From the IMG/VR virus record IMGVR_UViG_3300046791_000298, positions 1-64,000 of that record: a DNA stretch of 64,000 bases; one strand, written 5' to 3'. Below the pieces are notes generated by a model. The model saw nothing but the letters and a program-made list of their open reading frames with translations. It searched no databases and had not been told where the DNA came from. Each line of letters opens with the position of its first letter. Position 1 is the first letter of the stretch. Source of the DNA: a virus. Positions 1,059 to 60,308 of the stretch are shown in pieces. Made by a program: the position numbers and the translations under genes.

Positions 1059-1688
1059 ATGGTAATGACATTAGATGACCTAGCTATCAAGCACGGAGCC
1101 GACAAAGCGAGCACCACTCACAACTATACGCCAGTATATGAGAGGTTCTTTAGCCCTCTCAGGGACAAGGAATTGACGCTATTTGAAATTGGGTTTGGTG
1201 GATACAACTTCCCAGACAGGGGAGGGGCCGGAGCAAAAATGTGGCATGATTACTTCCTTCGCGGTAAAATTATCACTCTCGATTTGCATGAAAAGAATCC
1301 ATTAAACTACGATCGGATCAAATTTTACAGAGGTAGCCAGGAAGATGCACCCTTTCTGCGTAGTGTTGTTGATATTGAGGGTGCGCCTGATATCATCGTG
1401 GATGACGCCTCACACATTAGTCCTCTCACAATTCGAACATTTGAAATTCTTTTCCCATTGTTGAAATCTGGAGGCTGGTATATTATCGAGGATCTCCACG
1501 CCAGTTATTGGGATGTTCCCGCTACCGATGGGACTGATTTCAAGGGCGGTATCAATAACCCCAAGGCAGTTCTGAATTTCCTTAAGTCATTGGTTGACTC
1601 ACTTAACCATGTCCACTGCCCTATACCTAGCCAGAAAATCCACGGCATCCATTTCTTCGAAAAAATAGTATTCATCCAAAAATCCTAA
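1059..1688 (+). CDS. class I SAM-dependent methyltransferase, sugar or small-molecule type
   Basis: This 209-residue protein has the plan of the macrolide/cephalosporin-type methyltransferases (MycE-like). It has an N-terminal HGADK...YTPVYERFF segment, motif I LFEIGFGGY (about 41-49) followed by a Gly-rich loop, an acidic motif II TLDLHEKN (about 74-81), and the metal-binding DIIVDDASH (about 111-119). A conserved GGWYIIEDLH follows. It is the first gene of the glycan operon, which suggests O-methylation of a sugar on the virion or on a cell-surface glycan. Translation could begin at 1059 or at the second ATG at 1065. Another enzyme of the same fold cannot be excluded. Confidence 0.8.
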   Translation: MVMTLDDLAIKHGADKASTTHNYTPVYERFFSPLRDKELTLFEIGFGGYNFPDRGGAGAKMWHDYFLRGKIITLDLHEKNPLNYDRIKFYRGSQEDAPFLRSVVDIEGAPDIIVDDASHISPLTIRTFEILFPLLKSGGWYIIEDLHASYWDVPATDGTDFKGGINNPKAVLNFLKSLVDSLNHVHCPIPSQKIHGIHFFEKIVFIQKS

Positions 1689-1691
1689 CCT

Positions 1692-2399
1692 ATGCTTGTA
1701 CCATTAAAAAGACAATTACTGGACCTCGACAATGTTGAAGGTCCTGACATGCTCATGAGAAGAACTGAGGGACTTGATTGGCCCGCGAAGGCGGAGACAA
1801 TGATTGGGCTTAAGCGAATGGATAATATCATGTTCTGCTTGATGGAAATTATGGCTAAGGATATCCCTGGTGATGTTCTGGAGGCTGGCGTTTGGCGGGG
1901 GGGAGCCTGTATATTCATGAAGGCTATCCTAAACGAATACAGGAGTGACAAAAAAGTATTTGTTTGTGATTCTTTTGAAGGACTCCCGGCCCCAGAAGTT
2001 ATTCAGGACGCAGGTTCACAACTCCACACTTTCACAGCTTTGGCGGTCCCTCAAAGTGAGGTTGTAAAGAATTTCGAGAAGTATGGACTTCTTGATAACA
2101 ATGTAGTTTTCATTAAAGGGTGGTTTAAGGACACCTTGCCAAAATTAAAAGGGCACACATTTTCACTTATCCGCCTGGATGGAGATATGTACAAAAGCAC
2201 AATTGACCAACTTGAAAATCTGTACGATGGAGTATCAGTTGGTGGGTTCATTATTATCGATGATTGGGCAATCGCAGAAGTCAGGATGGCCTGCGAAGAG
2301 TTTCGCGCTAAACGTGAAATTACAGATGAGGTAATACCGATCGATCAGCTTGGTGTTTACTGGAGGAAGACATGGAGTTTAACCAAAATCGGAGAATGA
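1692..2399 (+). CDS. TylF/MycF-like macrocin O-methyltransferase family protein
   Basis: This 235-residue protein has the features of the TylF family (PF05711): GLKRMDNIMFCLMEI near residues 38-52, motif I DVLEAGVWRGGACIFM (about 62-77), VCDSFEGLP (about 95-103), the metal-binding DGDMYKSTIDQLENL (about 162-176), and GGFIIIDDW (about 182-190). The family O-methylates deoxysugars with SAM and a divalent metal. It lies three bases after the preceding methyltransferase and its stop overlaps the next start (ATGA). Tandem sugar methyltransferases suggest that a specific methylated glycan is made. Confidence 0.88.
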   Translation: MLVPLKRQLLDLDNVEGPDMLMRRTEGLDWPAKAETMIGLKRMDNIMFCLMEIMAKDIPGDVLEAGVWRGGACIFMKAILNEYRSDKKVFVCDSFEGLPAPEVIQDAGSQLHTFTALAVPQSEVVKNFEKYGLLDNNVVFIKGWFKDTLPKLKGHTFSLIRLDGDMYKSTIDQLENLYDGVSVGGFIIIDDWAIAEVRMACEEFRAKREITDEVIPIDQLGVYWRKTWSLTKIGE

Positions 2400-4639
2400 T
2401 CACATTTAAAAAATTAGGGACCCATGGGCGCCTGGGCAATCAATTGTGGCAGATCGCATTCATGATCGGTCTTGCTAAAAAGCATGATCTGGTAAAAGTT
2501 CTTCCTGCATGGAAATACTCTGAGTACTTTGAGAATCCGGTTACATCGGATATCCCAGCTGACCAATTGACGACTACACATAAACTCGAAGAGCAACACT
2601 TCCACTATACTCCTAAATTTTGGGATCAGTATGCTGATGAGTTTAGAAATAAAAAATACGACATTACCTGTTGGGGCCAGTCTGAAAAGTACTTTGAAGA
2701 TTATAAGGTATATGTTCATACAACCTTTCAATTCAAGGATAGCTTCAAAAAATCAGTCATTGAGAAAATGCCGTCTCTGATGGAAGAAGGTAAGAGCCAT
2801 ATCGCTATCTCTGTACGCCAGGGTGATTACGTTGGTAATCCGAATTACGAATTAATCCCTATCAAGTTTTATCTGATGGCGTTATTTGAATACTTCCCTG
2901 ATTTCAGAAAGGATGCAATACTCCATATTTTCTCTGATGATATTCAATATTGTAAACTCCATTTCGGATGTCTTGATAATGTTGTATACGCAGAAGGAAT
3001 GAGCGACATAGAACAACTTTGTGCTGGCTCAATGTGTGACCATGCTATCATCGCTAATTCAACTTTCTCCTGGTGGATGGCTTGGCTGATTGAATACGGT
3101 CTTGAGAGTATCACAAAAATCATTTGCCCTAATTTCCTATTCAAAGGAGCGATGGCAAAGACCAACGATTCATCAGACTTCTATCCGGAACGATGGATTA
3201 AGTTGGACCATAAAATTAAGCGCATTGATCTTAAGAATACAACCTTTACTATTCCTGTTTACATGGATAGCCGTGATCGTAAACAGAATGTCGATCTATC
3301 GATTAAGTATTTGCGCGAAAATTTTGATACGAATATTACTGTAGGAGAGCAGGGACACCAGGATTTTTCGTACCTGAAAGACATCGTTGACTACCGGTTC
3401 TTTGAGGGGATGGCTGATTTCCACCGGACGAAGATGCTAAACGATATGGCTGGCGATGCCAAGACCCCCGTTGTGGTCAATTGGGATGGCGATATTATAA
3501 TCTCCCCTCTCCAGATTGTAGAGGCTACGCGGGCAATTGTCGAAGATAAGCAAGAGATGGTCTATCCGTATGATGGACGCTTCGCCAGGGTGGCGCGCCA
3601 TACATTCTATCAAACACTTGAAGAAAGAATGGATGTTGGTTGTTTAAGCCGAATTATTTTTAATGGCATGCGATCAGAGGATCCACCATCTGTCGGTGGG
3701 GCTATCTTCTGGGATTCCATGGCTTTCCTCCGTTCAGGACTTGAGAATGAGAACATGGTCTCTTATGGACCCGAGGATGCAGAGCGTTACGATCGGGCTA
3801 CCATGCTTGGAGTAAAGATACATCGCATTCCAGGGGTGCTTTACCATATCGATCACATTCAATCGATTAATTCAAGTGTGAAGCATCCCAAGTATCCAGA
3901 TAATGTTACTGAACTTGAGAAGATCCGCTCACTGACTAAATTACAATTGGAAACATATATTGACACATGGTCGTGGGCCCGGAAATATACGCCATCGTAT
4001 TACGAGTCAATTTTTGAAGAGTCAGTGAAATCGAGGGATATTGTTTTTGGTCTGCTTCATGACCTTGGATATTTAGATGGAAGGACAATTATAGATGTTG
4101 GATGTGGATTAGGGCAGTGGGGATTTGATGTGAAAGAGAAATTCGGAGTGGCTTATAAAGGAATAGACTTTGGTGTGCCACAGCATAAGTTAAAAATTCC
4201 AAATGGCCTTTATATTGATCATGATTTGAGGGAGCCCATTGCCCCTGGTTGTACTCGTTTTGGATTAGCCATCTGTTTGGAAGTGGGGGAACATTTACCA
4301 AAGGAATCAGCAGACCAATTAATTGATACCTTAACTTTATTAAGCGATACTATTTTGTTCTCCGCAGCAATTCCAGCACAGGGCGGTCTTGATCATATCA
4401 ATGAACAGTGGCAAAGTTGGTGGGCTGAGAAATTCATAGAGCGCGGATATCGCCCCCATCATTGTGATATTAGAGATGAGATTTGGGGTATTGAAGATGT
4501 GGGGGTTTGGTACCGACAAAATATGATTCTGTATGAAAAAGATGAGTTAGCCCATATCAACAAAGCCCTGTATCCACTCGATCGAATTCACCCACAGATG
4601 TACATGAACCTGATGAAGCATTACAGAATTTTAAAATAA
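2396..4639 (+). CDS. three-domain fusion: GT11 fucosyltransferase, GT7-like glycosyltransferase, methyltransferase
   Basis: The start is taken as the ATG at 2396, coupled to the upstream stop, giving 747 residues. The N-terminal third is an alpha-1,2-fucosyltransferase-like GT11 domain with HGRLGNQLWQ (about 9-18), SVRQGDYVG (about 138), FSDDIQYCK (about 180) and NSTFSWWMAW. The middle third (about 285-515) resembles GT7-type galactosyltransferases, with PVYMDSRDR, a DGD motif in VVNWDGDIII, GGAIFWDSMAFL and SYGPEDAERYDRA. The last third (about 525-745) is a class I methyltransferase with IIDVGCGLGQWGFD and later LEVGEHLPKE. It could build and cap two sugars of one glycan. The domain calls are strong; sugar identities are not visible. 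Confidence 0.88.
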   Translation: MITFKKLGTHGRLGNQLWQIAFMIGLAKKHDLVKVLPAWKYSEYFENPVTSDIPADQLTTTHKLEEQHFHYTPKFWDQYADEFRNKKYDITCWGQSEKYFEDYKVYVHTTFQFKDSFKKSVIEKMPSLMEEGKSHIAISVRQGDYVGNPNYELIPIKFYLMALFEYFPDFRKDAILHIFSDDIQYCKLHFGCLDNVVYAEGMSDIEQLCAGSMCDHAIIANSTFSWWMAWLIEYGLESITKIICPNFLFKGAMAKTNDSSDFYPERWIKLDHKIKRIDLKNTTFTIPVYMDSRDRKQNVDLSIKYLRENFDTNITVGEQGHQDFSYLKDIVDYRFFEGMADFHRTKMLNDMAGDAKTPVVVNWDGDIIISPLQIVEATRAIVEDKQEMVYPYDGRFARVARHTFYQTLEERMDVGCLSRIIFNGMRSEDPPSVGGAIFWDSMAFLRSGLENENMVSYGPEDAERYDRATMLGVKIHRIPGVLYHIDHIQSINSSVKHPKYPDNVTELEKIRSLTKLQLETYIDTWSWARKYTPSYYESIFEESVKSRDIVFGLLHDLGYLDGRTIIDVGCGLGQWGFDVKEKFGVAYKGIDFGVPQHKLKIPNGLYIDHDLREPIAPGCTRFGLAICLEVGEHLPKESADQLIDTLTLLSDTILFSAAIPAQGGLDHINEQWQSWWAEKFIERGYRPHHCDIRDEIWGIEDVGVWYRQNMILYEKDELAHINKALYPLDRIHPQMYMNLMKHYRILK

Positions 4640-29006: not shown

Positions 29007-30659
29007 ATGAACAAACTCATAATTCCTAAGCACGAGTATTTTAAAAAACTGCAAATTGGTCTGAATAAAATTGCAGATGCCGTCAAATCAACTCTCGGCC
29101 CCCAAGGACAGAATGTAATGATCCAGCACGCTGACGATAGCGTCACAGTCACAAAAGACGGTGTTACAGTCGCAAGCATTGTAAATTTTAAAGATCGCCT
29201 GGAAAATATTGGTGCTAGGCTGATCAAAGATGTGGCACAAAAAACCGTTGACTCTTCAGGGGATGGGACAACAACAGCAACCGTCCTAGCCCAGGCAATC
29301 ATCAATGAAGGATTTAAAAACATTGCTGCAGGCGCAAACCCGATGGAGTTGAAGAAAGGTATTGATCTGGCCGTAGGTCACGTAGTTCGCTGGTTAAAAG
29401 CAGAAAGCCAGCCTATTAAAACAAATGATCAACTCAAAAGCATTGCTACGATTGCAGCTAACAACAATGAAGAGATTGGAAAATTGATAGCTCAGGCATT
29501 CGAGAAAGTTGGTAGTGATGGTATTGTGACGATTGAAGACGGCAAGACCGCAGACACCGAGGTTAGATTTCTGGAGGGCATGCAGTTTGAACGCGGATGG
29601 CAAACGCCACATTTTGTGACTGATAATGGTAAAATGGAAGCGGTTTTGGAGAATCCATTTATTCTGATCCACGACAAGAAAATTACAAACATCAAAGAAC
29701 TCATGCCTGTGATGGAGGCTGTACATGCGGCCAAAGGTTCTATTTTATTAATCTCTGATGATCTTGAGGGGGAGGCGTTCGCTACGATGGTGATGAATAA
29801 ATTACAACACGGACTTAAAATATGTCCAGTCCGTGCTCCGCTGTTCGGAGAATGGAGAAATGCCATTCTGGAGGATTTAGCCATTGTCACAGGAGGCACC
29901 GTGGTAAGCGAGATTTTAGGCATGCGGCTCGATACAATTGATGAGAAAGTGCTTGGGAGGGCTGAAAAGGTAGTTATTAGCCGTGAGAAGACCGTAATCT
30001 TCAAAGGAGCAGGCAAAGAGGAGGCTGTCCAGGCGCGAATAGAGGCGATAAGAGCCCAGATTCCTCAAGCAGTCTCGGAGGTTCAAAAGAACCAGCTGCG
30101 TGCAAGGCTGGCCAAGCTAACTGGGGGCATTGCCATAATTTCAGTTGGAGCCGCGACTGAGATGGAGATGGGCGAAAAGAAGGATCGAATTGATGATGCT
30201 CTGCAGGCCACACGGGCGGCTAAGGAAGAAGGTATCCTGCCAGGCGGAGGTGTCTCGTATTTGAGAGCTAGTGAAGAACTAAATGATGGTTGGGAGAAAT
30301 TGAGCAGAGATGAAAAGACTGGAATAGAAATTGTAAAAAAGGCTTTACGTACCCCCATTGAAACTATACTTGAGAATGCTGGAGAATCAAAGGATGTAAT
30401 AATTAATCAGATTAGAACACGCGATGCTCACGGACCTGAATTGGATTACGGCTACAACGCTAAAACCAGACAGTTCGAGCACTTTATGGAAACTGGCATT
30501 ATTGACCCGACTAAAGTTGCTCGGCTATGCTTGGAGAACGCAGCCAGTGTTGCAGGGATGCTATTGACATCAAGGACCATTATTTACAACGATATCATGC
30601 AAGCACCCCAGGAGCAAATTCGGCCGGATGGTCGTAGCTTTGAGGAACTAGCCAATTAA
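29007..30659 (+). CDS. groEL: chaperonin GroEL
   Basis: This 550-residue protein spans a full GroEL. It shows VKSTLGPQGQNVMIQ (about 25-39), the ATPase loop VDSSGDGTTTATVLAQA (about 78-94), TIAANNNEEIGKLI, an apical domain with VRFLEGMQFERGWQTPHFVT (about 183-202), GAATEMEMGEKKDRIDDALQATRAA (about 384-408) with the ATP-hydrolysis Asp, and LPGGGVSYLRA. It lacks the usual C-terminal GGM-rich tail. It would fold phage or host proteins in the cytoplasm, capped by the phage GroES at 5356. Full-length phage GroEL genes are uncommon. Confidence 0.97.
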   Translation: MNKLIIPKHEYFKKLQIGLNKIADAVKSTLGPQGQNVMIQHADDSVTVTKDGVTVASIVNFKDRLENIGARLIKDVAQKTVDSSGDGTTTATVLAQAIINEGFKNIAAGANPMELKKGIDLAVGHVVRWLKAESQPIKTNDQLKSIATIAANNNEEIGKLIAQAFEKVGSDGIVTIEDGKTADTEVRFLEGMQFERGWQTPHFVTDNGKMEAVLENPFILIHDKKITNIKELMPVMEAVHAAKGSILLISDDLEGEAFATMVMNKLQHGLKICPVRAPLFGEWRNAILEDLAIVTGGTVVSEILGMRLDTIDEKVLGRAEKVVISREKTVIFKGAGKEEAVQARIEAIRAQIPQAVSEVQKNQLRARLAKLTGGIAIISVGAATEMEMGEKKDRIDDALQATRAAKEEGILPGGGVSYLRASEELNDGWEKLSRDEKTGIEIVKKALRTPIETILENAGESKDVIINQIRTRDAHGPELDYGYNAKTRQFEHFMETGIIDPTKVARLCLENAASVAGMLLTSRTIIYNDIMQAPQEQIRPDGRSFEELAN

Positions 30660-37269: not shown

Positions 37270-38709
37270 ATGAAGAGAATGTCGTTAGGCGTTTGCGTCA
37301 TCGCAAAAAATGAGGAAATTCTTATCGCTAGAATGTTAGAGTCATGCAAATGGGCAGATCAAATCGTGGTATGTGATACTGGGAGTATTGATCGGACAGT
37401 TGAAATATTAAATGGATATCCTAACGTAGAATGTCACAAAGATTACATCTGGGACGATGATTTCGCATCGTGTCAGAACCATGCTAAGGCCAAAATGAAA
37501 ACTGATTGGATCCTAAGTCTGGATTGTGACGAAGTTTTGCTTTCATCTGAAGAAGAAGTTCGTAGTGCAATTGAACTTGGAGAAAAATACATCAGATGCT
37601 TCATGATTGCGGAGGGCAGCAGCCGTCTTGAATTTAATTTCTCCAGGTTATTCCGTAATACTCCAGACATCTATTGGTGCCAACCGATACATAAACATTT
37701 GAATTTACCTGGCGAAGGTGAAGCAATTGGTAACGTTCGTATTATGTTTGGTTATAGCCCAGCACATGCGCTCGATCCTGACAGGGCCTTAAGAATTCTT
37801 GAAAGAGTTGTTGCCCAGGAAGGAGATGCGGCTGGGAGAAATCTATATTACCTCGGTAGAGAGTATTGGTACAAGCAAAGATACAAGGAGTGCACAAAAA
37901 CATTGGGTTGGTATGTTCAGATTGCTAATTGGCCAGCGGAAAAAGCAGAAGCGTTTTTAATAATGGCTCAATGCTACTCAGCACAAGGACTCGATGAGGA
38001 TGCTCGTGATGCATGCCTGCAGGCGATAAAAATTAATTCAAATTTCAAAGAAGCTATTGAATGGATGGCGGGGATATCTACACCTGCCAATGCAGCGCAG
38101 TGGACTCGCATGTCGCGTACAGCAAATAATCAGGATGTGCTGTGGGATAGATCACCAGCCAAGCCGGTTCATGACATTATCTTTTTATCTCCTCATAACG
38201 ATGATGAAACTCTGTATTGCTCGTATACGCTTATGCGTTATCATCCCCTAGTGATTGTGATCACAGATTCACACATCCAACCAGAAAGGGGAGACTTAGG
38301 ATGCACAGCAGAGATCAGAAGAAACGAAACAATAAAAGCAATGAACTTACTCGGGTGCCCAGTGTTGTTTATCGGCATTAAAGATACTGAACTTACTGAA
38401 GAGAATTTACGAGAACGTTTGAAGTTGTTAAATCCCGAAATAATTTATGTGCCAGCCATCCAAGGGGGTAATGCACAACATGATCTTGTTGGGAAGGTTG
38501 GGCTTGAATTATTTGGCAAGAAGTGTGAGAGGTACACGACTTACACTAAAACGGATTTATACACTACAAGCAATTGGGAGGTAAAGCCAACACAGACCGA
38601 AATGGAATTAAAAAATAAAGCGCTTGATTGTTACGAATCTCAATTGAATTTAAGATCAACTGCTCCACACTTTCAAGCGGTAAGAAACCGATCAGAATGG
38701 CTAGTTTAA
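37270..38709 (+). CDS. GT2 glycosyltransferase fused to TPR and a LmbE/PIG-L deacetylase domain
   Basis: This 479-residue protein has three parts. The first 160 residues are a GT2 domain (VCVIAKNEEILIARML near 8-23, CDTGSIDRTVEI near 36-47, ILSLDCDEVLL near 77-87). A TPR-like helical stretch follows (about 175-270; RYKECTKTLGWYVQIANW, EAFLIMAQCYSAQGLDEDA). The end is a LmbE-like domain with IIFLSPHNDDETLYCSYTL near 301-319 (the H-x-D-D metal motif of PIG-L/LmbE), VIVITDS, RRNETIKAMNLLG, and AQHDLVGKV near 400. The pairing suggests a sugar is added and an N-acetyl group removed. Confidence 0.88.
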   Translation: MKRMSLGVCVIAKNEEILIARMLESCKWADQIVVCDTGSIDRTVEILNGYPNVECHKDYIWDDDFASCQNHAKAKMKTDWILSLDCDEVLLSSEEEVRSAIELGEKYIRCFMIAEGSSRLEFNFSRLFRNTPDIYWCQPIHKHLNLPGEGEAIGNVRIMFGYSPAHALDPDRALRILERVVAQEGDAAGRNLYYLGREYWYKQRYKECTKTLGWYVQIANWPAEKAEAFLIMAQCYSAQGLDEDARDACLQAIKINSNFKEAIEWMAGISTPANAAQWTRMSRTANNQDVLWDRSPAKPVHDIIFLSPHNDDETLYCSYTLMRYHPLVIVITDSHIQPERGDLGCTAEIRRNETIKAMNLLGCPVLFIGIKDTELTEENLRERLKLLNPEIIYVPAIQGGNAQHDLVGKVGLELFGKKCERYTTYTKTDLYTTSNWEVKPTQTEMELKNKALDCYESQLNLRSTAPHFQAVRNRSEWLV

Positions 38710-40317: not shown

Positions 40318-40736
40318 AGGAGATAGCATTTAGCGGAAAAATTGGTGCTGGATTAAAATTCAAAGTAAGTGATAAATCATTCAAAAAAGTATCGAAACGG
40401 ACTCTTATTACTCTTCAAAGATATCTAAAGAATTTTCCAAAGGGAGTTGAAACCGACCATCGTGACGGAGATAAATTAAATTACCAATTAGCTAATCTTC
40501 GGCCAGCTACTCATCAACAAAATGCGATGAATAGAGGTAGACAAAAAAATAATTATTCATCAAAATATAAAGGTGTATGCTGGCACGATCAGCGCCAAAA
40601 ATGGTATGCACGAATACATATATCAGGGAAACAAATTAGTTGCGGACTTCATTCTTCTCAGAAAAAAGCGGCAATTGCTTACGATAAAAAAGCAAAAAAA
40701 TTGTTTGGTAACTTCGCAAAACTTAATTTCCAATAA
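40314..40736 (+). CDS. HNH endonuclease with AP2 DNA-binding domain (homing type)
   Basis: This 140-residue protein has an HNH_3-type nuclease core with ETDHRDGDKLNYQLANLR (about 44-61) and THQQNAMNRG (about 64-73). An AP2 domain follows (about 82-140: YKGVCWHDQRQKWYARIHI, then GLHSSQKKAAIAYDKKAKKL). This HNH-AP2 pair is the plan of phage homing endonucleases that copy themselves into allelic sites. It lies between two glycan genes with tight overlaps, so it is an insertion into the cassette. Confidence 0.9.
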   Translation: MKEIAFSGKIGAGLKFKVSDKSFKKVSKRTLITLQRYLKNFPKGVETDHRDGDKLNYQLANLRPATHQQNAMNRGRQKNNYSSKYKGVCWHDQRQKWYARIHISGKQISCGLHSSQKKAAIAYDKKAKKLFGNFAKLNFQ

Positions 40737-40737
40737 T

Positions 40738-41610
40738 ATGAAGCGCATTTGCATCTTTGGCGGATCCGGATTCCTTGGCACCGCACTAATTGAGAAATTG
40801 ATCTCAATGGGAGAATTAGATATTGTAACCGTGGCTAGGAATGAAGGAGGGCTCGTAAAATTGAAAGAGAGGTTCCCAACCGTTGAAATAATAGTTGGGG
40901 ATATCGCTGATCGATGGGTTGTACAAAAAGCCATGAGTTGCGCTAATGATGTCTATTTACTGAGTGCTATGAAGCATGTTGGTCTTGCTGAGACTGATGT
41001 AAATACATGTGCCAAAACAAATATTATCGGCACAATGAATGTAATAGAAGAATCGATCATCACAGTGCCAGATATTTTAATGTTTATTAGTTCCGATAAA
41101 GCCGCCCAGTCAACAGGTGTGTATGGATGCACAAAAAAGATTGGAGAGAAATTAATGAAGGAAGCTGAGGGGATAAATCGTTACACGAAGTATAGAGTTA
41201 TCAGATATGGCAATGTGTGGGGGAGTACAGGAAGTATCAGCACAAAATGGAAGCCTAAAATGTTGGCTGGAGAAGAGGTGATAATAACGGATCCGGAAGC
41301 CTCAAGATTCTTCTGGGAAGTTGGCGATGCTGTTGATGTAATTTTTAAATGTATTGATGTGGCCATTAATGCAACTCCATCAATACCAATTATGAAGGCA
41401 GTAAAAATGGGTGTTGTTTTAAATGCATGCATGGAAGTTTGGGGTCAGTCACCCGTAAAAATCATCGGCCTTCAACCAGGAGAGAATAAAGTTGAGACCA
41501 CTGATGGCATCACATTCAGTGATAGTGTAGAACAGTTTACCCGTTCTGAATTCATTGATAAGTTTCTGAAAAAGAGAGCAAATGAAAGTAAGCGCAGTAC
41601 TGATCACTAA
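40738..41610 (+). CDS. PseB/CapD-like UDP-GlcNAc 4,6-dehydratase (extended SDR)
   Basis: The ATG at 40738 gives 290 residues. The Rossmann start KRICIFGGSGFLGTALIEKL (2-21) binds NAD(P), VGDIADRW follows near 55, DVYLLSAMKHVGLAE near 75-89 is the conserved AA-KHV segment, and FISSDKAAQSTGVYGCTKKI (about 116-135) carries the Y-x-x-x-K (YGCTK) catalytic pair. GENKVETT near the end resembles the C-terminus of PseB/FlaA1-type dehydratases. It would make a 4-keto-6-deoxy sugar nucleotide for the cassette. Confidence 0.85.
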   Translation: MKRICIFGGSGFLGTALIEKLISMGELDIVTVARNEGGLVKLKERFPTVEIIVGDIADRWVVQKAMSCANDVYLLSAMKHVGLAETDVNTCAKTNIIGTMNVIEESIITVPDILMFISSDKAAQSTGVYGCTKKIGEKLMKEAEGINRYTKYRVIRYGNVWGSTGSISTKWKPKMLAGEEVIITDPEASRFFWEVGDAVDVIFKCIDVAINATPSIPIMKAVKMGVVLNACMEVWGQSPVKIIGLQPGENKVETTDGITFSDSVEQFTRSEFIDKFLKKRANESKRSTDH

Positions 41611-44274: not shown

Positions 44275-47200
44275 TTAAGTTTTTAAGCACGCCACCAATT
44301 TACTTATTTTTTTGCGCACACCCATGAGGGTATCGTGGGCACTCCCAGCATTGATTTCCTCATGGATATATTTTAAAGAAGGGACCGATACAGATACAGT
44401 GGTTTCCCTAGCTTCTGGGGATAGAATTTGATTCTCTGAAATTTCTTGAGTTAGTCCCTCAGAGCCGCCTTGTTGAGGCTTTCCAGCATTCGTTTGCTGC
44501 GTGCTCTCATTGACTGCCTGGTTGGAGACGTTGGACGTTGATACAGTTTTTGTTTCTCCAGTGGAAGCTGGTCGTACTCCTTCTGCGTAATCGCGTCTTT
44601 TGATGGTGAGTCCTTCGTACTGAGATTTTGTGATTTTTCCTTCATTATATAGCTTTTCTGTGATTCCTGTGAGCTTTTTCTCCAGTTCTTTAGCAGTATA
44701 AGGAATTTCAGGGATTTTAGCAATTCTTACCTCCTTTGCATTCCCAGCCCCCCTGCTATTATCAATAACGGTAAAATGGACTTTACTGTTACCTTTATAT
44801 TGCCTCATTAACTGATCAATATTTACCCGGGAACCGATATGAGTTTGGGCATGTATAAAAATAGGAACCGTCCGCCCGAAACCGTCAGATTTTTTATCCA
44901 ACATTCTTTTGATAACACCGTTTTCAAAGGCTTCAACTGGATCACGATATGTGTATCGGATATCGATATCTTTAACTCCAGCATTAAGAGCTTTATCAAT
45001 TTTCTCTTTAGCGGTTTCAAAATGATCAAGATTGCCGTCATAAATAAAACGAACACTGTTTGGATCCTCACCCTCTAAGGAAACAGTCTTACCTGAACCA
45101 GTTCCTCCACTTGTAAATATTCCAGTATTCTCTTCGCCCTTTAAGAACCACTCAGCATCAAGTTTCTCCTGGTATAATTTTCTTATAAAGGCCGCGGCAG
45201 GTTCGTGTACTGCGGATGATAACGCGCGATTATCCTCATAATCCTTTGAAAGTTCGCGTGCATTATCGGCATTCAGGACATTGCCAAATTTCTCTTTATA
45301 GGTCTTCTTGGCCTCCCCAAAATTCTCATTCAAGTACTTACCGAACTTAGTTTCAACTGCTTTTTGCTCTGGAGAAAGTGATGGTTCTGGAGTATATGGG
45401 ACAGGTTGCTTTTCTTTCAGCTTGTAAGCAAATGCCTTTTCTCCGTTGGCCAGAGTGATTTCCTCGCGTTGATATTTATTTTCATATTTATCTAGCTTCT
45501 CTAATTGCTGAGGGCTCAATTCCATAACCTGGCCAGGGACCTTATCTTCTCCTGATTCAAGTGTGGTATAACCATCTCCAACATCCTTCACCTTGCCGGT
45601 TGTTTCCGCGGATGTAGTTGTCACATCTTCTCCTAATGCTTGTTTCCTTGTCTCCGCATCTTTTAGTGTTCCATAAACGAATACCTTTTTTACTCCTTCT
45701 TTGACCACCGGCTCTTTGGCCGTTTCTTTTTCTCCTTCGAGATTCGCTTGGGCAGTTTCTTTCCCTTCGACGCCTGGTTCCACTCGTCCACGTTTACTCC
45801 CTGGGACTCCAGCTTCTCCCTGTTCGCGTTGAAGTAACCCCTCTGTGCTTGGCTTTTGTAAGGCATTTTGTATCCCCTCCTCGGATTTTATTTGTTCAGA
45901 GTTATCTACACTTTGTTGAATAGCCTCGGCTGATTTATCAAGAGCATTGATATCGTTCGGATCAACATTTTTTTGTTCTTCTTTAATAACAGTAGTTGCA
46001 TTCTTTCCAAGGTCCCCAGCTGGAACCGATAAATTATTTTCATTGAATTCAGAAATAGCTGTAACTGATCCGAAGACTGCTCCAGGAGCGAACCCCTGCA
46101 TCCCTGCATTGAATGCACGCTGATGATTAACATTAGCCATTGCCTCTGTAAGAGTCATGCCATTTGCTAGTAATGCTCCAACCTGTTGATCAACGTCCTG
46201 TAAATATTCAGTTGCAAATTCTCCACCTCCGGCTATTCCGATATCTTTCAGCGCTCCTTTAACACCAAATTTTACAACCTGTTCAAGTACTTGTTTTTTT
46301 GCTGATTTTAGAAAGACTTGTTTTATGGCTTTCCCTGCTCCTGCTAAAAAACCAAGACCCTCAAGCCCCATACTGATTAGACCGACAGTGTTGGCGATAT
46401 TTTCATCCGATTGATTCTCTTCTTTCGTCTGAATCTTTTCAAGACTTATCGGTGTGATCTCTGTTCCAAATTTTTCGCTTAAGTTTTGCGCCTTCTTTGC
46501 TCGAATTTCATCAAGAGCATCGTAACGCTCCATCTTAAATAGAATAACTGGAGATGTGGCAAACCCAATTGAACTAGCAACTCCTTGCCCAACACTTCCT
46601 TCTAACCATTTCTCGAAATCTTTAGCCGATTTGATCGAAGTAAAATCTTGAGGTATGCCTTTTAAGTTTTCTTGTCCTTGTGTCTGATTGGCAACAATTT
46701 TTTCTTTCTCAAAGGTATCTCTGGTCTTTTGGATCAATCGGTTTACTTCGTCTTTGTAAAATCCCATCACTCTTTCAGGAGAGGTATTTGATGATTTCGA
46801 GGCGCGAAGTAAAATATTGTATGTATCCTTTGCTGCTCTATTTTGATTAGGATGAAGTTGCGTACCGGGTTCTTGTGCGGCTCTTTCTTTGTATTCAGCC
46901 AATAGGTCTTTTAATGGAGTTGACTTAATCTTCTCCATTGTCAGAATCCCTGTCTCTTCAGCATCGGTTGGTCCCTGGTCCGCCTTCTTCAATAACTCCT
47001 CATAATTTGTAGGCATACTTTTTAAAGCCTCACGATGGATAACTAGGGGAGTCGCAGTTGTAAAAAAATTAACAAATGATCTTACTAGAGCATCTCCAAT
47101 CCCTGTTGGGTTTAATGGATTATAGCCTGTATGGAGTTCCCCTCCCGTATTCTTTTCGGAAGGCTTTGGCGAAGGCTCTTGAACCACTGATGATACCCCT

Positions 47201-47397
47201 GTAGAAACGACCGGCTTTTGTGCGGTGAAACCATCTGAGGATTTTTGGTCTTCTGTAGTAGGCTCTTTTTTTTTTACTTGGTTGAGTTGCCGAAGGATTG
47301 GATCCTCTTCCTCGGACGTAGTCTGTTCCTCAACCTTTTTTTTTGGCTTCGATCCGTTTAATTTCTTGAGAATGGGGTCATCTATCTCTTCTGCCAT
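44275..47397 (-). CDS. polyvalent internal protein with AIG2/GGCT-like and zeta-toxin-like domains
   Basis: This 1040-residue protein starts with a doubled short motif (DPILKKLN at residue 7 and DPILRQLN near 32), then a disordered Pro/Ser/Glu region. A helical middle follows, with a Gly/Ala hydrophobic stretch near 345-365. Near 575-665 an AIG2/gamma-glutamylcyclotransferase-like domain (FVYGTLKDAETRKQALG, then LEKLDKYENKYQREEI) follows. Near 760-900 a zeta-toxin-like kinase follows: GIFTSGGTGSGKTVSLEG (P-loop), FIYDGNLDHF, YTYRDPVEAF, GRTVPIF, VIDNSRG. The layout fits the 'polyvalent' proteins ejected by phages. It could disarm or kill host processes on entry. Confidence 0.8.
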   Translation of the reverse strand: MAEEIDDPILKKLNGSKPKKKVEEQTTSEEEDPILRQLNQVKKKEPTTEDQKSSDGFTAQKPVVSTGVSSVVQEPSPKPSEKNTGGELHTGYNPLNPTGIGDALVRSFVNFFTTATPLVIHREALKSMPTNYEELLKKADQGPTDAEETGILTMEKIKSTPLKDLLAEYKERAAQEPGTQLHPNQNRAAKDTYNILLRASKSSNTSPERVMGFYKDEVNRLIQKTRDTFEKEKIVANQTQGQENLKGIPQDFTSIKSAKDFEKWLEGSVGQGVASSIGFATSPVILFKMERYDALDEIRAKKAQNLSEKFGTEITPISLEKIQTKEENQSDENIANTVGLISMGLEGLGFLAGAGKAIKQVFLKSAKKQVLEQVVKFGVKGALKDIGIAGGGEFATEYLQDVDQQVGALLANGMTLTEAMANVNHQRAFNAGMQGFAPGAVFGSVTAISEFNENNLSVPAGDLGKNATTVIKEEQKNVDPNDINALDKSAEAIQQSVDNSEQIKSEEGIQNALQKPSTEGLLQREQGEAGVPGSKRGRVEPGVEGKETAQANLEGEKETAKEPVVKEGVKKVFVYGTLKDAETRKQALGEDVTTTSAETTGKVKDVGDGYTTLESGEDKVPGQVMELSPQQLEKLDKYENKYQREEITLANGEKAFAYKLKEKQPVPYTPEPSLSPEQKAVETKFGKYLNENFGEAKKTYKEKFGNVLNADNARELSKDYEDNRALSSAVHEPAAAFIRKLYQEKLDAEWFLKGEENTGIFTSGGTGSGKTVSLEGEDPNSVRFIYDGNLDHFETAKEKIDKALNAGVKDIDIRYTYRDPVEAFENGVIKRMLDKKSDGFGRTVPIFIHAQTHIGSRVNIDQLMRQYKGNSKVHFTVIDNSRGAGNAKEVRIAKIPEIPYTAKELEKKLTGITEKLYNEGKITKSQYEGLTIKRRDYAEGVRPASTGETKTVSTSNVSNQAVNESTQQTNAGKPQQGGSEGLTQEISENQILSPEARETTVSVSVPSLKYIHEEINAGSAHDTLMGVRKKISKLVACLKT

Positions 47398-56247: not shown

Positions 56248-57798
56248 CTAAACTCCTACAGGCTTTCTGTCTGTATAACTCTGAATATTTGTACAATCAG
56301 TAATTGTTCCATTGAATGTATTTATTGTTCTCCCTCCACTAGCATCTATTCTTGTAAAAGAAGCTAATAAGTTACAATTATTATTGCCATTATTTGGCAT
56401 TAAAATGTTGGCTTTCGTGCTTGCATGAGAGGAGGTGAAAAGCACTATTGATCCTGTCCTTGATTTAAAGCAACTGAAAGATGCCGTAATTGTGTAGGTA
56501 ACAGATTCTTTAAAATTCACAGTTATTGCCGTTGTTACTACACAAGTAACAGTTGCGGCTGTGAACCCAGATGAACCAGCAAAAGTCGTTGTTGCTCCAT
56601 TACCAATAGTTAAAGTAGCCGAAATAGATAACAATGAATTAATTGTATATGTTTTCCCTGTCGTATTTGTCAATGTTACATTGTTCCAAGTTATACCATT
56701 GGTATTCAGAGTGCAGGTTCCTAAAAGTGAAAGTGTTGAAGATGTGGTCGTAATCGTTCCGCTGGTGTAAGTCAGTGTGCCGGTATTGTACAGAACAGTA
56801 CCGCTAATTGTAATAGCCCCCCCAACTAAAGTTAGGTTATTTGAAACGCCACCTCCTCCCCCAGTATCAGACCATGTTCCTGAATCCAGTTCAATATCCG
56901 CAGTCCCAGTCATATTGACACCACAGGTAATCCCATTGCAAAATACTTTTTCACTTGCTGTTTTGTTAATAACAAGACCAGTAGTACCAACAACGAAAGA
57001 TGACAATGTTGCACCAACATGCAAATCTTCTGTTAATGTAATGGATGCAGATAAATTTTGACCACCTTCAATATTATTAAAGGTGACAGCATTTGCTTTG
57101 ATTGTAACCGAACCATTAATTGTCATTTTTCCAGTAACCGTAACCGTCCCTGAAACGTACTCCATCAAGGCTCCTCCATACACCGTATCCCCGATAGAAC
57201 TATTACCATCAAGATATAATGTCGTAGTTAAACTTCCTGTCCATGTTCCACCCTTTAAATACACTAAAGCAGAGCCACTCAAACCTTCAATTAACGGCAA
57301 TCCACTTACATTTAATTTCTCTGCCGTTGTTTTATTTACCGCATTCGTACCCGTTCCTGCTGATGTAGAGAATGTCCCGCTAACGGTAAAATCACCGACA
57401 AGCGTAATTGTTTTATTAACATTGCCGAGTAGGTTTATATTATTCGGCCATGTTTTACCACCACTTGTAACCGTACCTGTTGCTGTAAGAACTATCCTTG
57501 AGCTTCCCGCAATAGTAAACCCAGTGTGCATCGTCCAATTACCGCCTATCCGGAGTTCAGCATTATGAGTTATGGTTTGCGTGTACCCTGCCGTAATGTT
57601 CAAAGAGAGTACATCAGATATTGCATTGACGGTAGCATTAGAATTTCCCAATACGCCACCACCATCAAATGTAACATCATCCGTAGAAACTGGTACAGAG
57701 GCATTGCCTACACCACCGGAAGTTGCAGACCAATTAGTTGGCACTGTTGCATTCCAGTTTGCTGATGACCCGCCTCCAACCCAAAATCTAGCTGCCAT
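56248..57798 (-). CDS. beta-helical tail fibre or adhesin protein (paralogue 1)
   Basis: This 516-residue protein starts MAARFWVGGGSSANWN and is made of beta-solenoid-like repeats, short Thr/Ser/Gly-rich strands such as GTLTYTSGTITTTSSTLSL and NTNGITWNNVTLTNTTG. There is no signal peptide. It is closely similar, over its first 130 residues and in repeat style, to the C-terminal part of the gene at 57980 (ASRFWVGGGSNANWN onward), so the two are paralogues. A fibre, spike or receptor-binding role is probable. Confidence 0.7.
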   Translation of the reverse strand: MAARFWVGGGSSANWNATVPTNWSATSGGVGNASVPVSTDDVTFDGGGVLGNSNATVNAISDVLSLNITAGYTQTITHNAELRIGGNWTMHTGFTIAGSSRIVLTATGTVTSGGKTWPNNINLLGNVNKTITLVGDFTVSGTFSTSAGTGTNAVNKTTAEKLNVSGLPLIEGLSGSALVYLKGGTWTGSLTTTLYLDGNSSIGDTVYGGALMEYVSGTVTVTGKMTINGSVTIKANAVTFNNIEGGQNLSASITLTEDLHVGATLSSFVVGTTGLVINKTASEKVFCNGITCGVNMTGTADIELDSGTWSDTGGGGGVSNNLTLVGGAITISGTVLYNTGTLTYTSGTITTTSSTLSLLGTCTLNTNGITWNNVTLTNTTGKTYTINSLLSISATLTIGNGATTTFAGSSGFTAATVTCVVTTAITVNFKESVTYTITASFSCFKSRTGSIVLFTSSHASTKANILMPNNGNNNCNLLASFTRIDASGGRTINTFNGTITDCTNIQSYTDRKPVGV

Positions 57799-57979: not shown

Positions 57980-59929
57980 TTAATTCGCTACTGTTAATAA
58001 ATCATGGAATTCTTGAATATTAATACAATCCGTTATAGTTCCATTAAAAGTTCTGATAGGTCTTCCTCCACTCGCATCGATACGAGTAAAATTTGCAAGT
58101 ACATTGCACGCTGCTCCATTTTGTAAAGTTAAAATTGTTTTTGTTGTGGCATGTGCTGAAATAAAAGTTAATGAAGCCCCATTACTGGAAGTGCTGCAAT
58201 TAAAATAAGATGTTACAGTATATGTTATAGATTCTTTCAGAGTAACTGCGGCCGTAGTAACATGACTCGATACTAATGTCCCAACCGTCCAACCCGCACT
58301 TCCTGTAAAGGTTGTTGGATTTATTTGCAAATTTAAAGTTGTAGAACTCAATAAAGAATTAATAGTTATCGTTAAGACAGAAGATGAATTAGCCATGTTC
58401 ACAGTCTCCCAACTCATCCCATTTGTACTAAGTGTACAATCGGATGTTAATAATAAAATTGATGAGGTAACTGTGATGGTGCCTGAATTATAAGTAAGCG
58501 TACCAGTTTTATATTGAACAGTCCCACTTATGGTTACATTGCCTTGTAGAAATGTATTATTACTTAACCCAGTAACACTCCCACCTGTCCATGTTCCACC
58601 AGTTAAATAAAAATCAGCAGTTCCTTGGGTTGCTGATGTCACGGTGATCCCTCCACTTATTGTAACAGTTTCGGCTGTTGTCTTATTAATAGTAACACCA
58701 GCTCCAGCATTTAATAATAATAATCCAGAAATTGTCAAATTAGATGTTAAGGTCATATTAACCTGTCCACCAGAAGTCGAACAACTAAAATTGTTCCAGG
58801 TTATTCCATTAGTATTAAATACTGTTGATGCGGCAGAAATGACCCTTATAGTTGAGCCAGTTGTAGTGATTGTGCCACTAATATATGTTATGGTTTTTTC
58901 TCCAAAATTTACTGTTCCCGAAATAGTAACGTTTCCCTGTAAATCTAAATCGGTTTGAATTTGACTTGGAGAACCTCCAGACCATGTTCCACCAGTTAAA
59001 ATTATCTTAACTGTGCCTGATATATTAGCACTTACAGTAATCCCGCCAGATAAAGTTAATGTCTCTGCTGCAGTAGGGGTTAAGGTTGTTGTAGAGGAAA
59101 TGGTAAGAAGACCGGAAATCGTAAAATTACCACTTAGCGTCTTGGTGCTGGATAGCGACCAAGTCATTGCATTAGGCCAAGTCTTCCCTCCACTCGTTAT
59201 CGTTGAAGTAGCATTAATAGTAATAGAACTCGATCCTGCTATTGTATAAGAGGTATTTAAAGTAAGATTACCAGAAATAGTAAGCGCCGCATTGTGAGTC
59301 ATAGTCTGTGTATATCCGGACGTAATGGTTAAGGAAAGTACATTAATGGTAGCTGATATTGTGCTATTACTATTTCCACTAGCACCTGCACCATCGAATG
59401 TTACATCATCAGTTGAAGTTGGTACAGAGGCATTGCCAGCCCCTCCAGAAGTACCAGACCAATTAGTATTTGATGTTGCATTCCAGTTAGCATTACTTCC
59501 ACCACCTACCCAAAATCTCGAAGCATTATGAACAATTAATCCATCAGCAATGTAAACATGATCACCATCAACCCTTATCAACCACCAAGTTTCATCAGGT
59601 GAAGTTTCTTCTATAGAAGTTATAACTACTTCCTGCCTATCTTCATCATAGATAATATCTCCAATCTGTAATAATTTGGCATGAGTAATCCCACTTTGCT
59701 TGGTAGGTATTGATTGGTTTTTAAATAATTTGTATGTACCGTTAATTAAATAAAAAATGAACTCACCATGATGCTCCTTAAAATCGGGATCTGTTTTGGG
59801 TGAGAGTCTCTCCTTACTGATTAAAAAGTTTGAAATAGTAATCCCTGTATCTTCATCGTAGGCAAGAAGTTCATCACCAACAAAGATATCTTCAATATTT
59901 TTATAGCCGTAAGGAGTACGTAGACGCAT
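57980..59929 (-). CDS. beta-helical fibre paralogue 2 with N-terminal Hint domain
   Basis: This 649-residue protein has a Hint (intein-like) domain at residues 1-135, then ASRFWVGGGSNANWN starts a beta-solenoid fibre matching paralogue 1 from its second residue. The Hint part shows TPYGYKNIEDIFVGDELLAY (5-24), LLQIGDIIYDEDRQEVVITS (86-105) and ends DHVYIADGLIVHN (123-135), giving the C-terminal His-Asn. The N-terminal Cys/Ser is absent and the block-B His position reads Gln. Asn cyclisation could release the fibre with an A-S-R-F-W N-terminus, as in paralogue 1. The fold call is by motif. Confidence 0.8.
   Translation of the reverse strand: MRLRTPYGYKNIEDIFVGDELLAYDEDTGITISNFLISKERLSPKTDPDFKEHHGEFIFYLINGTYKLFKNQSIPTKQSGITHAKLLQIGDIIYDEDRQEVVITSIEETSPDETWWLIRVDGDHVYIADGLIVHNASRFWVGGGSNANWNATSNTNWSGTSGGAGNASVPTSTDDVTFDGAGASGNSNSTISATINVLSLTITSGYTQTMTHNAALTISGNLTLNTSYTIAGSSSITINATSTITSGGKTWPNAMTWSLSSTKTLSGNFTISGLLTISSTTTLTPTAAETLTLSGGITVSANISGTVKIILTGGTWSGGSPSQIQTDLDLQGNVTISGTVNFGEKTITYISGTITTTGSTIRVISAASTVFNTNGITWNNFSCSTSGGQVNMTLTSNLTISGLLLLNAGAGVTINKTTAETVTISGGITVTSATQGTADFYLTGGTWTGGSVTGLSNNTFLQGNVTISGTVQYKTGTLTYNSGTITVTSSILLLTSDCTLSTNGMSWETVNMANSSSVLTITINSLLSSTTLNLQINPTTFTGSAGWTVGTLVSSHVTTAAVTLKESITYTVTSYFNCSTSSNGASLTFISAHATTKTILTLQNGAACNVLANFTRIDASGGRPIRTFNGTITDCINIQEFHDLLTVAN
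59525..59929 (-). other. Hint (intein-like) domain region at the N-terminus of the fibre gene
   Basis: It covers residues 1-135 of the fibre gene. Just before the ATG, the same frame reads S-G-K after a TAG stop at 59939-59941, so a former longer N-terminus (in many Hint domains C-x-x-x-G-T-K-V-R-T-P) may have been cut off. The following gene junction and the exact match of the residues after His-Asn with paralogue 1 mark the domain border. Confidence 0.7.
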
Positions 59930-59930
59930 T

Positions 59931-60308
59931 TTACCACTCTATCGCTTTTGTATCATCCCCTGGCAAAACACCAGCAAAATTATCAAAAGTAATTCCTGAC
60001 GTTGGTCCCGATGTTCCCAATTCACTATCAGCTAGTTCATTATTCACATCAAGAACAGGAGTTGCGGTAGTATATTCATTCAACAGAAATTCACAAATAG
60101 CTTTCTGTGAACCAAAATTACTACCCTGGGAAAGTATCTGCTTCGCATAACGCTTTCTCTTTTGAAGTCTGGCGTTATAATCTACTAGTGCCGCTGGGGT
60201 AGTATTAGTATGGTATGTTGCAAGAGATTTAAAACCCATCCACACTCTTTGTTGGAAGGTTTCCTTTGCGGCCATGACCGCTTTTTCAGAATATGTTAGT
60301 GCTGCCAT
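59931..60308 (-). CDS. small structural-like protein before the fibre gene
   Basis: This 125-residue protein is helical (YSEKAVMAAKETFQQRVWMG, then NARLQKRKRYAKQILSQ) and ends with GDDTKAIEW. Its stop lies one base before the Hint-fibre ATG, so the two are co-translated. Role unknown; possibly a fibre-anchor or small tail protein. Confidence 0.5.
   Translation of the reverse strand: MAALTYSEKAVMAAKETFQQRVWMGFKSLATYHTNTTPAALVDYNARLQKRKRYAKQILSQGSNFGSQKAICEFLLNEYTTATPVLDVNNELADSELGTSGPTSGITFDNFAGVLPGDDTKAIEW

What the first reader, a model, noticed from the sequence alone, without database searches (positions are those of the whole stretch)
57980..59929. Fibre protein with a Hint domain that keeps only its C-terminal cleavage residues
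The sequence shows two paralogous fibres, one with a 135-residue Hint-like segment in front. It ends in V-H-N and is followed at once by A-S-R-F-W, matching the other paralogue's A-A-R-F-W start. The N-terminal nucleophile is missing (the gene starts M-R-L-R-T-P) and the block-B His position reads Gln. In established intein chemistry these residues serve N-terminal cleavage, while His-Asn drives C-terminal release. I infer a self-removing N-terminal cap that lets the fibre assemble or turn active only after cleavage.
Basis: partly seen in the sequence, partly recalled or inferred. Interest (0 to 1): 0.85.

Follow-up and report, generated by a model that had tools for sequence, protein, structure and literature searches.

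The report
Self-cutting cap on phage fibre protein
Some uncultured phages make a fibre-like protein with an intein-like domain at its front that has lost the parts for cutting at its own start but always keeps the parts for cutting at its end, so it probably cuts itself off and leaves the fibre with the same first residue as ordinary capless fibres; the cutting itself has not been tested.

Summary
The ORF at 57980-59929(-) is a 135-residue Hint domain joined at V-H-N|A-S-R-F-W to a fibre body 53% identical to a capless paralogue beside it (M-A-A-R-F-W). AlphaFold plus Foldseek give a Hint fold; best matches are bacterial intein-like domains and the gp41-1 intein. Ten more IMG/VR records carry the same fusion. 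In all 11, translation starts at the residue matching intein position 6, so Cys1 and block A are absent; the block-B Thr and His positions read mostly Phe and always Gln; His-Asn|Ala-Ser-Arg is invariant. The cap is under purifying selection, sits on several divergent fibre bodies, and stands exactly where abundant capless fibres have the Met of M-A-x-R-F-W. Ser at +2 occurs in 11/11 capped against 15/112 capless fibres. Best explanation: a natural C-cleaving mini-Hint without motif A that removes itself by Asn cyclisation, leaving the fibre starting with Ala as Met removal would. An engineered intein lacking motif A is known to C-cleave spontaneously. Cleavage here is inferred; why the phage uses a cap, and whether cleavage gates assembly, are open. 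New variant of a known kind.

The parts
59525..59929 (-). N-terminal cap: Hint domain without block A (residues 1-135)
   Evidence: Pfam PT-HINT / Intein_splicing weak hits; AlphaFold + Foldseek to BIL 2lwy and gp41-1 6qaz, TM by target length 0.74; 11-member family
59927..59929 (-). Start codon at the residue that matches Hint position 6; Cys1 and block A absent
   Evidence: Start ATG/GTG at the same position in 11/11; our residue 3 pairs with residue 8 of a complete Hint
59711..59716 (-). Gln72-Ser73, invariant, in place of the block-B His (the Thr position is Phe69)
   Evidence: 11/11 Q and S; register from hhalign
59558..59560 (-). Block-F His124 (His in 8 of 11, Ser in 3)
59525..59530 (-). 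His134-Asn135, predicted C-terminal cleavage residues; cut predicted between 59525 and 59524
   Evidence: Invariant in 11/11
59516..59524 (-). Ala136-Ser137-Arg138, predicted new N-terminus of the fibre; Ser at +2 follows the cap
   Evidence: 11/11 capped against 15/112 capless with Ser at this place
57980..59524 (-). Fibre or appendage body (residues 136-649 and stop)
   Evidence: 53% identical to the capless paralogue; all-beta model for the body of relative L014, pLDDT mostly above 80
56248..57798 (-). Capless paralogue, starts M-A-A-R-F-W

Best explanation
The gene encodes a self-cleaving N-terminal leader fused to a phage fibre or appendage protein. Shown: the leader is a Hint domain that starts at position 6 of the canonical fold, so it has no N-terminal nucleophile and nothing upstream to splice; it lacks the block-B Thr/His pair; it keeps the C-terminal His-Asn and, in most members, the block-F His. 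Inferred: after translation the domain folds, Asn135 cyclises to a succinimide and breaks the Asn135-Ala136 bond, leaving a free Hint fragment and a fibre that begins A-S-R-F-W, equivalent to the N-terminus that methionine aminopeptidase would make on capless M-A-x-R-F-W fibres. Likely benefit (inference, weakest step): a removable expression, folding or timing module that leaves an exact N-terminus.
For: Hint fold in two models. Eleven records with start codon at the same Hint position and invariant HN|ASR. Cap plus HN replaces exactly the Met of abundant capless fibres. dN/dS 0.13-0.27 in the cap. Cap on several divergent fibre bodies; Ser+2 follows the cap. The engineered Ssp DnaX intein without its 11-residue motif-A part cleaves spontaneously at its C-terminus (PMC3443213 citing Qi et al. 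2011), and C-cleaving DnaB/DnaX inteins work as removable N-terminal modules (PMC10127266).
Against: No cleavage data. The Ssp DnaB equivalent lacking the N-part is not active on its own. The block-F His is Ser in 3 of 11. The junction (residues 131-139) has pLDDT below 50 in the L014 model. Members are metagenomic contigs and related to each other.
Confidence: 0.75

Rival explanations
1. Conditional cap: without its first strand the Hint is inactive on its own and cleaves only when a partner (virion protein, chaperone, the folded fibre trimer, or an N-intein-like peptide) completes or reshapes the pocket, so that cleavage is coupled to assembly.
For: The C-part of Ssp DnaB needs its N-part in trans to cleave (PMC3443213). 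The cap always sits on a fibre, and no other passenger was found.
Against: No conserved partner gene beside the cap: upstream genes differ. No credible N-part in the window's record; the one look-alike is antisense to a methyltransferase gene. Ssp DnaX cleaves without a partner.
Confidence: 0.17
2. Non-cleaving domain: the Hint is kept as a structural or docking head of the fibre and never removed.
For: Loss of two of the three catalytic regions; block-F His not invariant.
Against: His-Asn at the exact junction invariant in 11/11, and the residue after it matches the mature N-terminus of capless fibres.
Confidence: 0.07
3. Decayed intein: a remnant with no function.
For: Missing block A and block-B residues.
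Against: Same truncation in 11 records, purifying selection (dN/dS 0.13-0.27), invariant C-terminal residues, no frame damage.
Confidence: 0.02
4. C-part of a natural split intein that trans-splices the fibre to another protein.
For: Atypical split inteins with a short N-part exist; record G008, which carries a cap gene, also holds what looks like the C-part of a split terminase intein.
Against: +1 is Ala in 11/11, so there is no Cys/Ser/Thr nucleophile for transesterification; no credible N-part in the window's record.
Confidence: 0.01

Closest known systems
A-type bacterial intein-like (BIL) domains (structure 2lwy, C. thermocellum)
   Same: Hint fold (best Foldseek match), C-terminal His-Asn, no Cys/Ser/Thr at +1, cleavage rather than splicing
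   Different: BIL domains keep block A and can cleave at both ends; here block A and the block-B Thr/His are gone and the domain is the very N-terminus
PT-HINT pretoxin Hint (PF07591)
   Same: Best Pfam match; sits just before the module it is thought to release
   Different: Internal in long secreted toxins; here N-terminal, truncated, passenger is a fibre body, and all scores that were printed lie below Pfam's cut-off
Engineered Ssp DnaX intein without motif A (Qi, Meng and Liu 2011, as described in PMC3443213)
   Same: Hint domain lacking the N-terminal motif, C-cleavage only
   Different: Man-made; 11 residues removed; a C-extein of choice; here natural, about 5 residues missing, dedicated to one protein type
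SIGER removable intein expression modules (PMC10127266)
   Same: Self-removing N-terminal intein in front of a protein of interest
   Different: Synthetic; built from DnaB and DnaX inteins
Class 2 and class 3 inteins
   Same: No standard Cys1 nucleophile; fold and C-terminal motif
   Different: They keep block A (with a changed residue 1) and have an N-extein and a +1 nucleophile; here none of these is present

Membership tests
Hint superfamily | Hint horseshoe fold | tested here: met
   AlphaFold models plus Foldseek, TM by target length 0.74 to 2lwy and 6qaz
Intein (protein splicing) | N-terminal block A with Cys/Ser (or class 2/3 substitute) and an N-extein | tested here: not met
   Start codon at Hint position 6 in 11/11; no Cys in the short upstream open stretch
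Intein (protein splicing) | Nucleophile at +1 (Cys/Ser/Thr) | tested here: not met
   Ala in 11/11
Intein (protein splicing) | Block-B Thr-x-x-His | tested here: not met
   Phe/Tyr/Asn and Gln at these columns
A-type BIL domain | C-terminal His-Asn with a non-nucleophile at +1 | tested here: met
   HN|A in 11/11; definition from PMC7765530 and PMC7664689
A-type BIL domain | Complete set of N-terminal Hint motifs | tested here: not met
   Block A absent, block B altered
A-type BIL domain | C-terminal autocleavage | not testable with these tools
   Needs expression and N-terminal sequencing
PT-HINT (PF07591) | Score above Pfam's curated cut-off | tested here: not met
   21.1 bits against 27.7 for the window; 8 of 11 members match below E 0.1
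Phage tail fibre | Gene in a virion/tail gene neighbourhood | tested here: met
   Neighbours match tail or virion structural PHROGs in the window and in L013, L017, L019
Phage tail fibre | Body matches a known fibre family or fold | tested here: inconclusive
   No Pfam or PHROG match; confident all-beta model of L014 but no significant PDB match to the body

The most novel reading that the evidence does not exclude
The cap is a natural assembly-coupled switch: a Hint domain that has given up its own first strand cleaves only when the fibre folds, trimerises or docks, so that phages time fibre maturation by Asn cyclisation.
Probability: 0.2. Interest if true: 0.85.

Novelty: new variant of a known kind. 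Interest (0 to 1): 0.68.

Why it matters
It would be a natural, conserved case of an intein-like domain reduced to a single reaction, C-terminal release, by deletion of block A, and used to set the N-terminus of a phage structural protein. Protein engineers made the same kind of truncation independently. The family offers ready-made C-cleaving tags and a direct test of whether phages time fibre maturation by self-cleavage. I found no description of it in the papers searched and no relative among 50,697 phage records.

Tried and rejected
Frameshift or readthrough from the upstream gene to supply block A: rejected, because upstream C-termini differ among relatives and the short in-frame extensions lack Cys. 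The LPGDDT at the end of the window's upstream gene: treated as coincidence. N-intein peptide elsewhere in the window's record: two pattern hits; the better one (C-L-F-N-G-T-S-I-G at the end of a TTG-started ORF at 1685-1951(-)) is antisense to a clear TylF methyltransferase gene and was set aside. INPHARED tblastn with three cap queries and the whole protein: no match. First single-sequence scan of IMG/VR: nothing confirmed; the family appeared only through a DNA pattern across the junction. GTDB genome scan: only complete Hint domains in two MAGs. Caps on other passengers: the search patterns came from the family itself, so such caps could have been missed; everything confirmed with a start at position 6 was on this fibre type, and L161 proved to be an ordinary intein. 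Literature searches found no report of such a cap.

Full report
What was checked. The window lies in an IMG/VR virus record of 76,829 bases. Its body is 53% identical to the next long ORF, 56248-57798(-), which begins M-A-A-R-F-W. Upstream of the Met only three codons are open.

Is it a Hint domain? Alone, residues 1-135 score weakly against PT-HINT (E 4e-4) and Intein_splicing (E 0.0019), below curated cut-offs. An 11-sequence alignment gave an AlphaFold model that is confident over most of the Hint part and poor over the truncated fibre part. Foldseek returned bacterial intein-like domains, gp41-1, Mtu RecA and DnaB inteins (E down to 5e-7; TM by target length 0.74 for 2lwy and 6qaz). A second model, of the whole relative L014 (mean pLDDT 84), again gave 2lwy as best hit. 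Profile alignment with the complete Hint of L020 (probability 98%, 132 columns) pairs our residue 3 with its residue 8. Our Met1 is therefore Hint position 6, and only about the first five residues, with Cys1, are missing. It pairs Phe69 and Gln72 with the block-B Thr and His.

A family. A DNA pattern across the junction (H-N-x-x-R-F-W-V-G) and three alignment-based scans of IMG/VR found ten further records. All 11 have ATG or GTG at the same position, M-[QNR]-[VIL]-[LR]-T-P-x-G-Y, with no Cys in the short open stretch before it. Column counts over 11: Met1 11, Gln72 11, Ser73 11, His83 11, Trp115 11, block-F His 8 (Ser 3), His134 11, Asn135 11, then Ala 11, Ser 11, Arg 11. Upstream genes differ from record to record where they could be read. 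Nearby genes match phage virion or tail families in several records.

Capped against capless. In alignment the cap with its HN stands exactly where capless fibres have Met. After Asn cyclisation the capped protein would begin with Ala, as a capless one does once its Met is removed (own knowledge of methionine aminopeptidase). The residue at +2 is Ser in 11/11 capped but 15/112 capless fibres (Fisher p 5e-9, not corrected for relatedness). For the window, L019, L026 and L029 the nearest capless fibre has Ala instead, so Ser follows the cap across fibre lineages, either as part of a moving cap module or because it helps the reaction. The cap therefore sits on several divergent fibre bodies.

Selection. 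Nei-Gojobori dN/dS for the cap is 0.13-0.27 in five pairs with usable dS, although dS is near saturation in four of them. A decaying remnant is unlikely.

Mechanism. Shown: fold, truncation, loss of the N-terminal cleavage residues, invariance of His-Asn. Inferred: Asn cyclisation cuts between 59525 and 59524. Precedent: PMC3443213 reports that the Ssp DnaX intein without its 11-residue N-part cleaves spontaneously at its C-terminus (Qi et al. 2011), whereas the Ssp DnaB equivalent does not without the N-part. PMC10127266 used C-cleaving DnaB and DnaX inteins as removable N-terminal expression modules. The phage family looks like a natural counterpart. Whether release is spontaneous or coupled to assembly, and what the phage gains, cannot be decided from sequence.

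Membership. It is a member of the Hint superfamily by fold. It is not an intein: block A, the N-extein, the +1 nucleophile and block-B Thr/His are all missing. It works like the C-terminal half of an A-type BIL domain (definition in PMC7765530), but it lacks the N-terminal motifs that A-type BIL domains keep, so it is filed as a variant and not as a plain member.

Limits. All members are uncultured or provirus-like IMG/VR records; some are short; the sequences are related, so counts are not independent events. The fibre role rests on gene neighbourhood and on an all-beta model without a clear solved relative. No cleavage data exist.

Noticed in passing
L162:1415-3112(-) (record G008, the same record as cap gene L030): Terminase-like protein that begins with what looks like the C-part of an atypical split intein (starts M-Y-K-I, ends H-H-N|T-T-V); the N-part was not looked for.
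   Followed up: partly
L020:4161-5495(+): Glycine-rich phage protein with a complete BIL-like Hint inside (C-F-P-A-G-T ... T-G-N-H ... V-H-N|G-G-G-G); closest full-length relative of the cap found here.
   Followed up: partly
L021:4567-6147 and L022:4591-6135 (MAGs titled Bdellovibrio sp. and Proteobacteria bacterium): Lipoprotein-like proteins with a complete Hint near the C-terminus, G-D-H-S-Y-I-A-D-G-Y-K-V-H-N|V-Q-N.
   Followed up: no
L017:5001-5591(+): Cap with a partial internal duplication of the middle of the Hint domain (197 residues instead of about 140); the first copy reads A-L-H-S-L where the second has R-E-Q-S-V.
   Followed up: no
window 59931-60308(-): The gene just upstream ends G-V-L-P-G-D-D-T-K-A-I-E-W, which resembles block A without its Cys; not seen in relatives, judged coincidence.
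   Followed up: partly
L161:2096-4288(+): Helicase-like phage protein with one full intein and the start of a second; the second has Met at Hint position 6 (C-F-D-G-N-M-R-V-L-T-P-H-G-Y), showing how a new start codon could arise there.
   Followed up: no
window 29007-30659(+): Phage-encoded Cpn60 chaperonin, Pfam E 3e-77.
   Followed up: no
window 44275-47397(-): 1040-aa protein in the virion gene region with a gamma-glutamyl cyclotransferase-like domain and a weak zeta-toxin-like match.
   Followed up: no
window 1059-4639(+), 37270-38709(+), 40573-41610(+): Sugar- and methyl-modification genes: TylF methyltransferase, glycosyltransferase family 11, PIG-L deacetylase, polysaccharide epimerase.
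   Followed up: no
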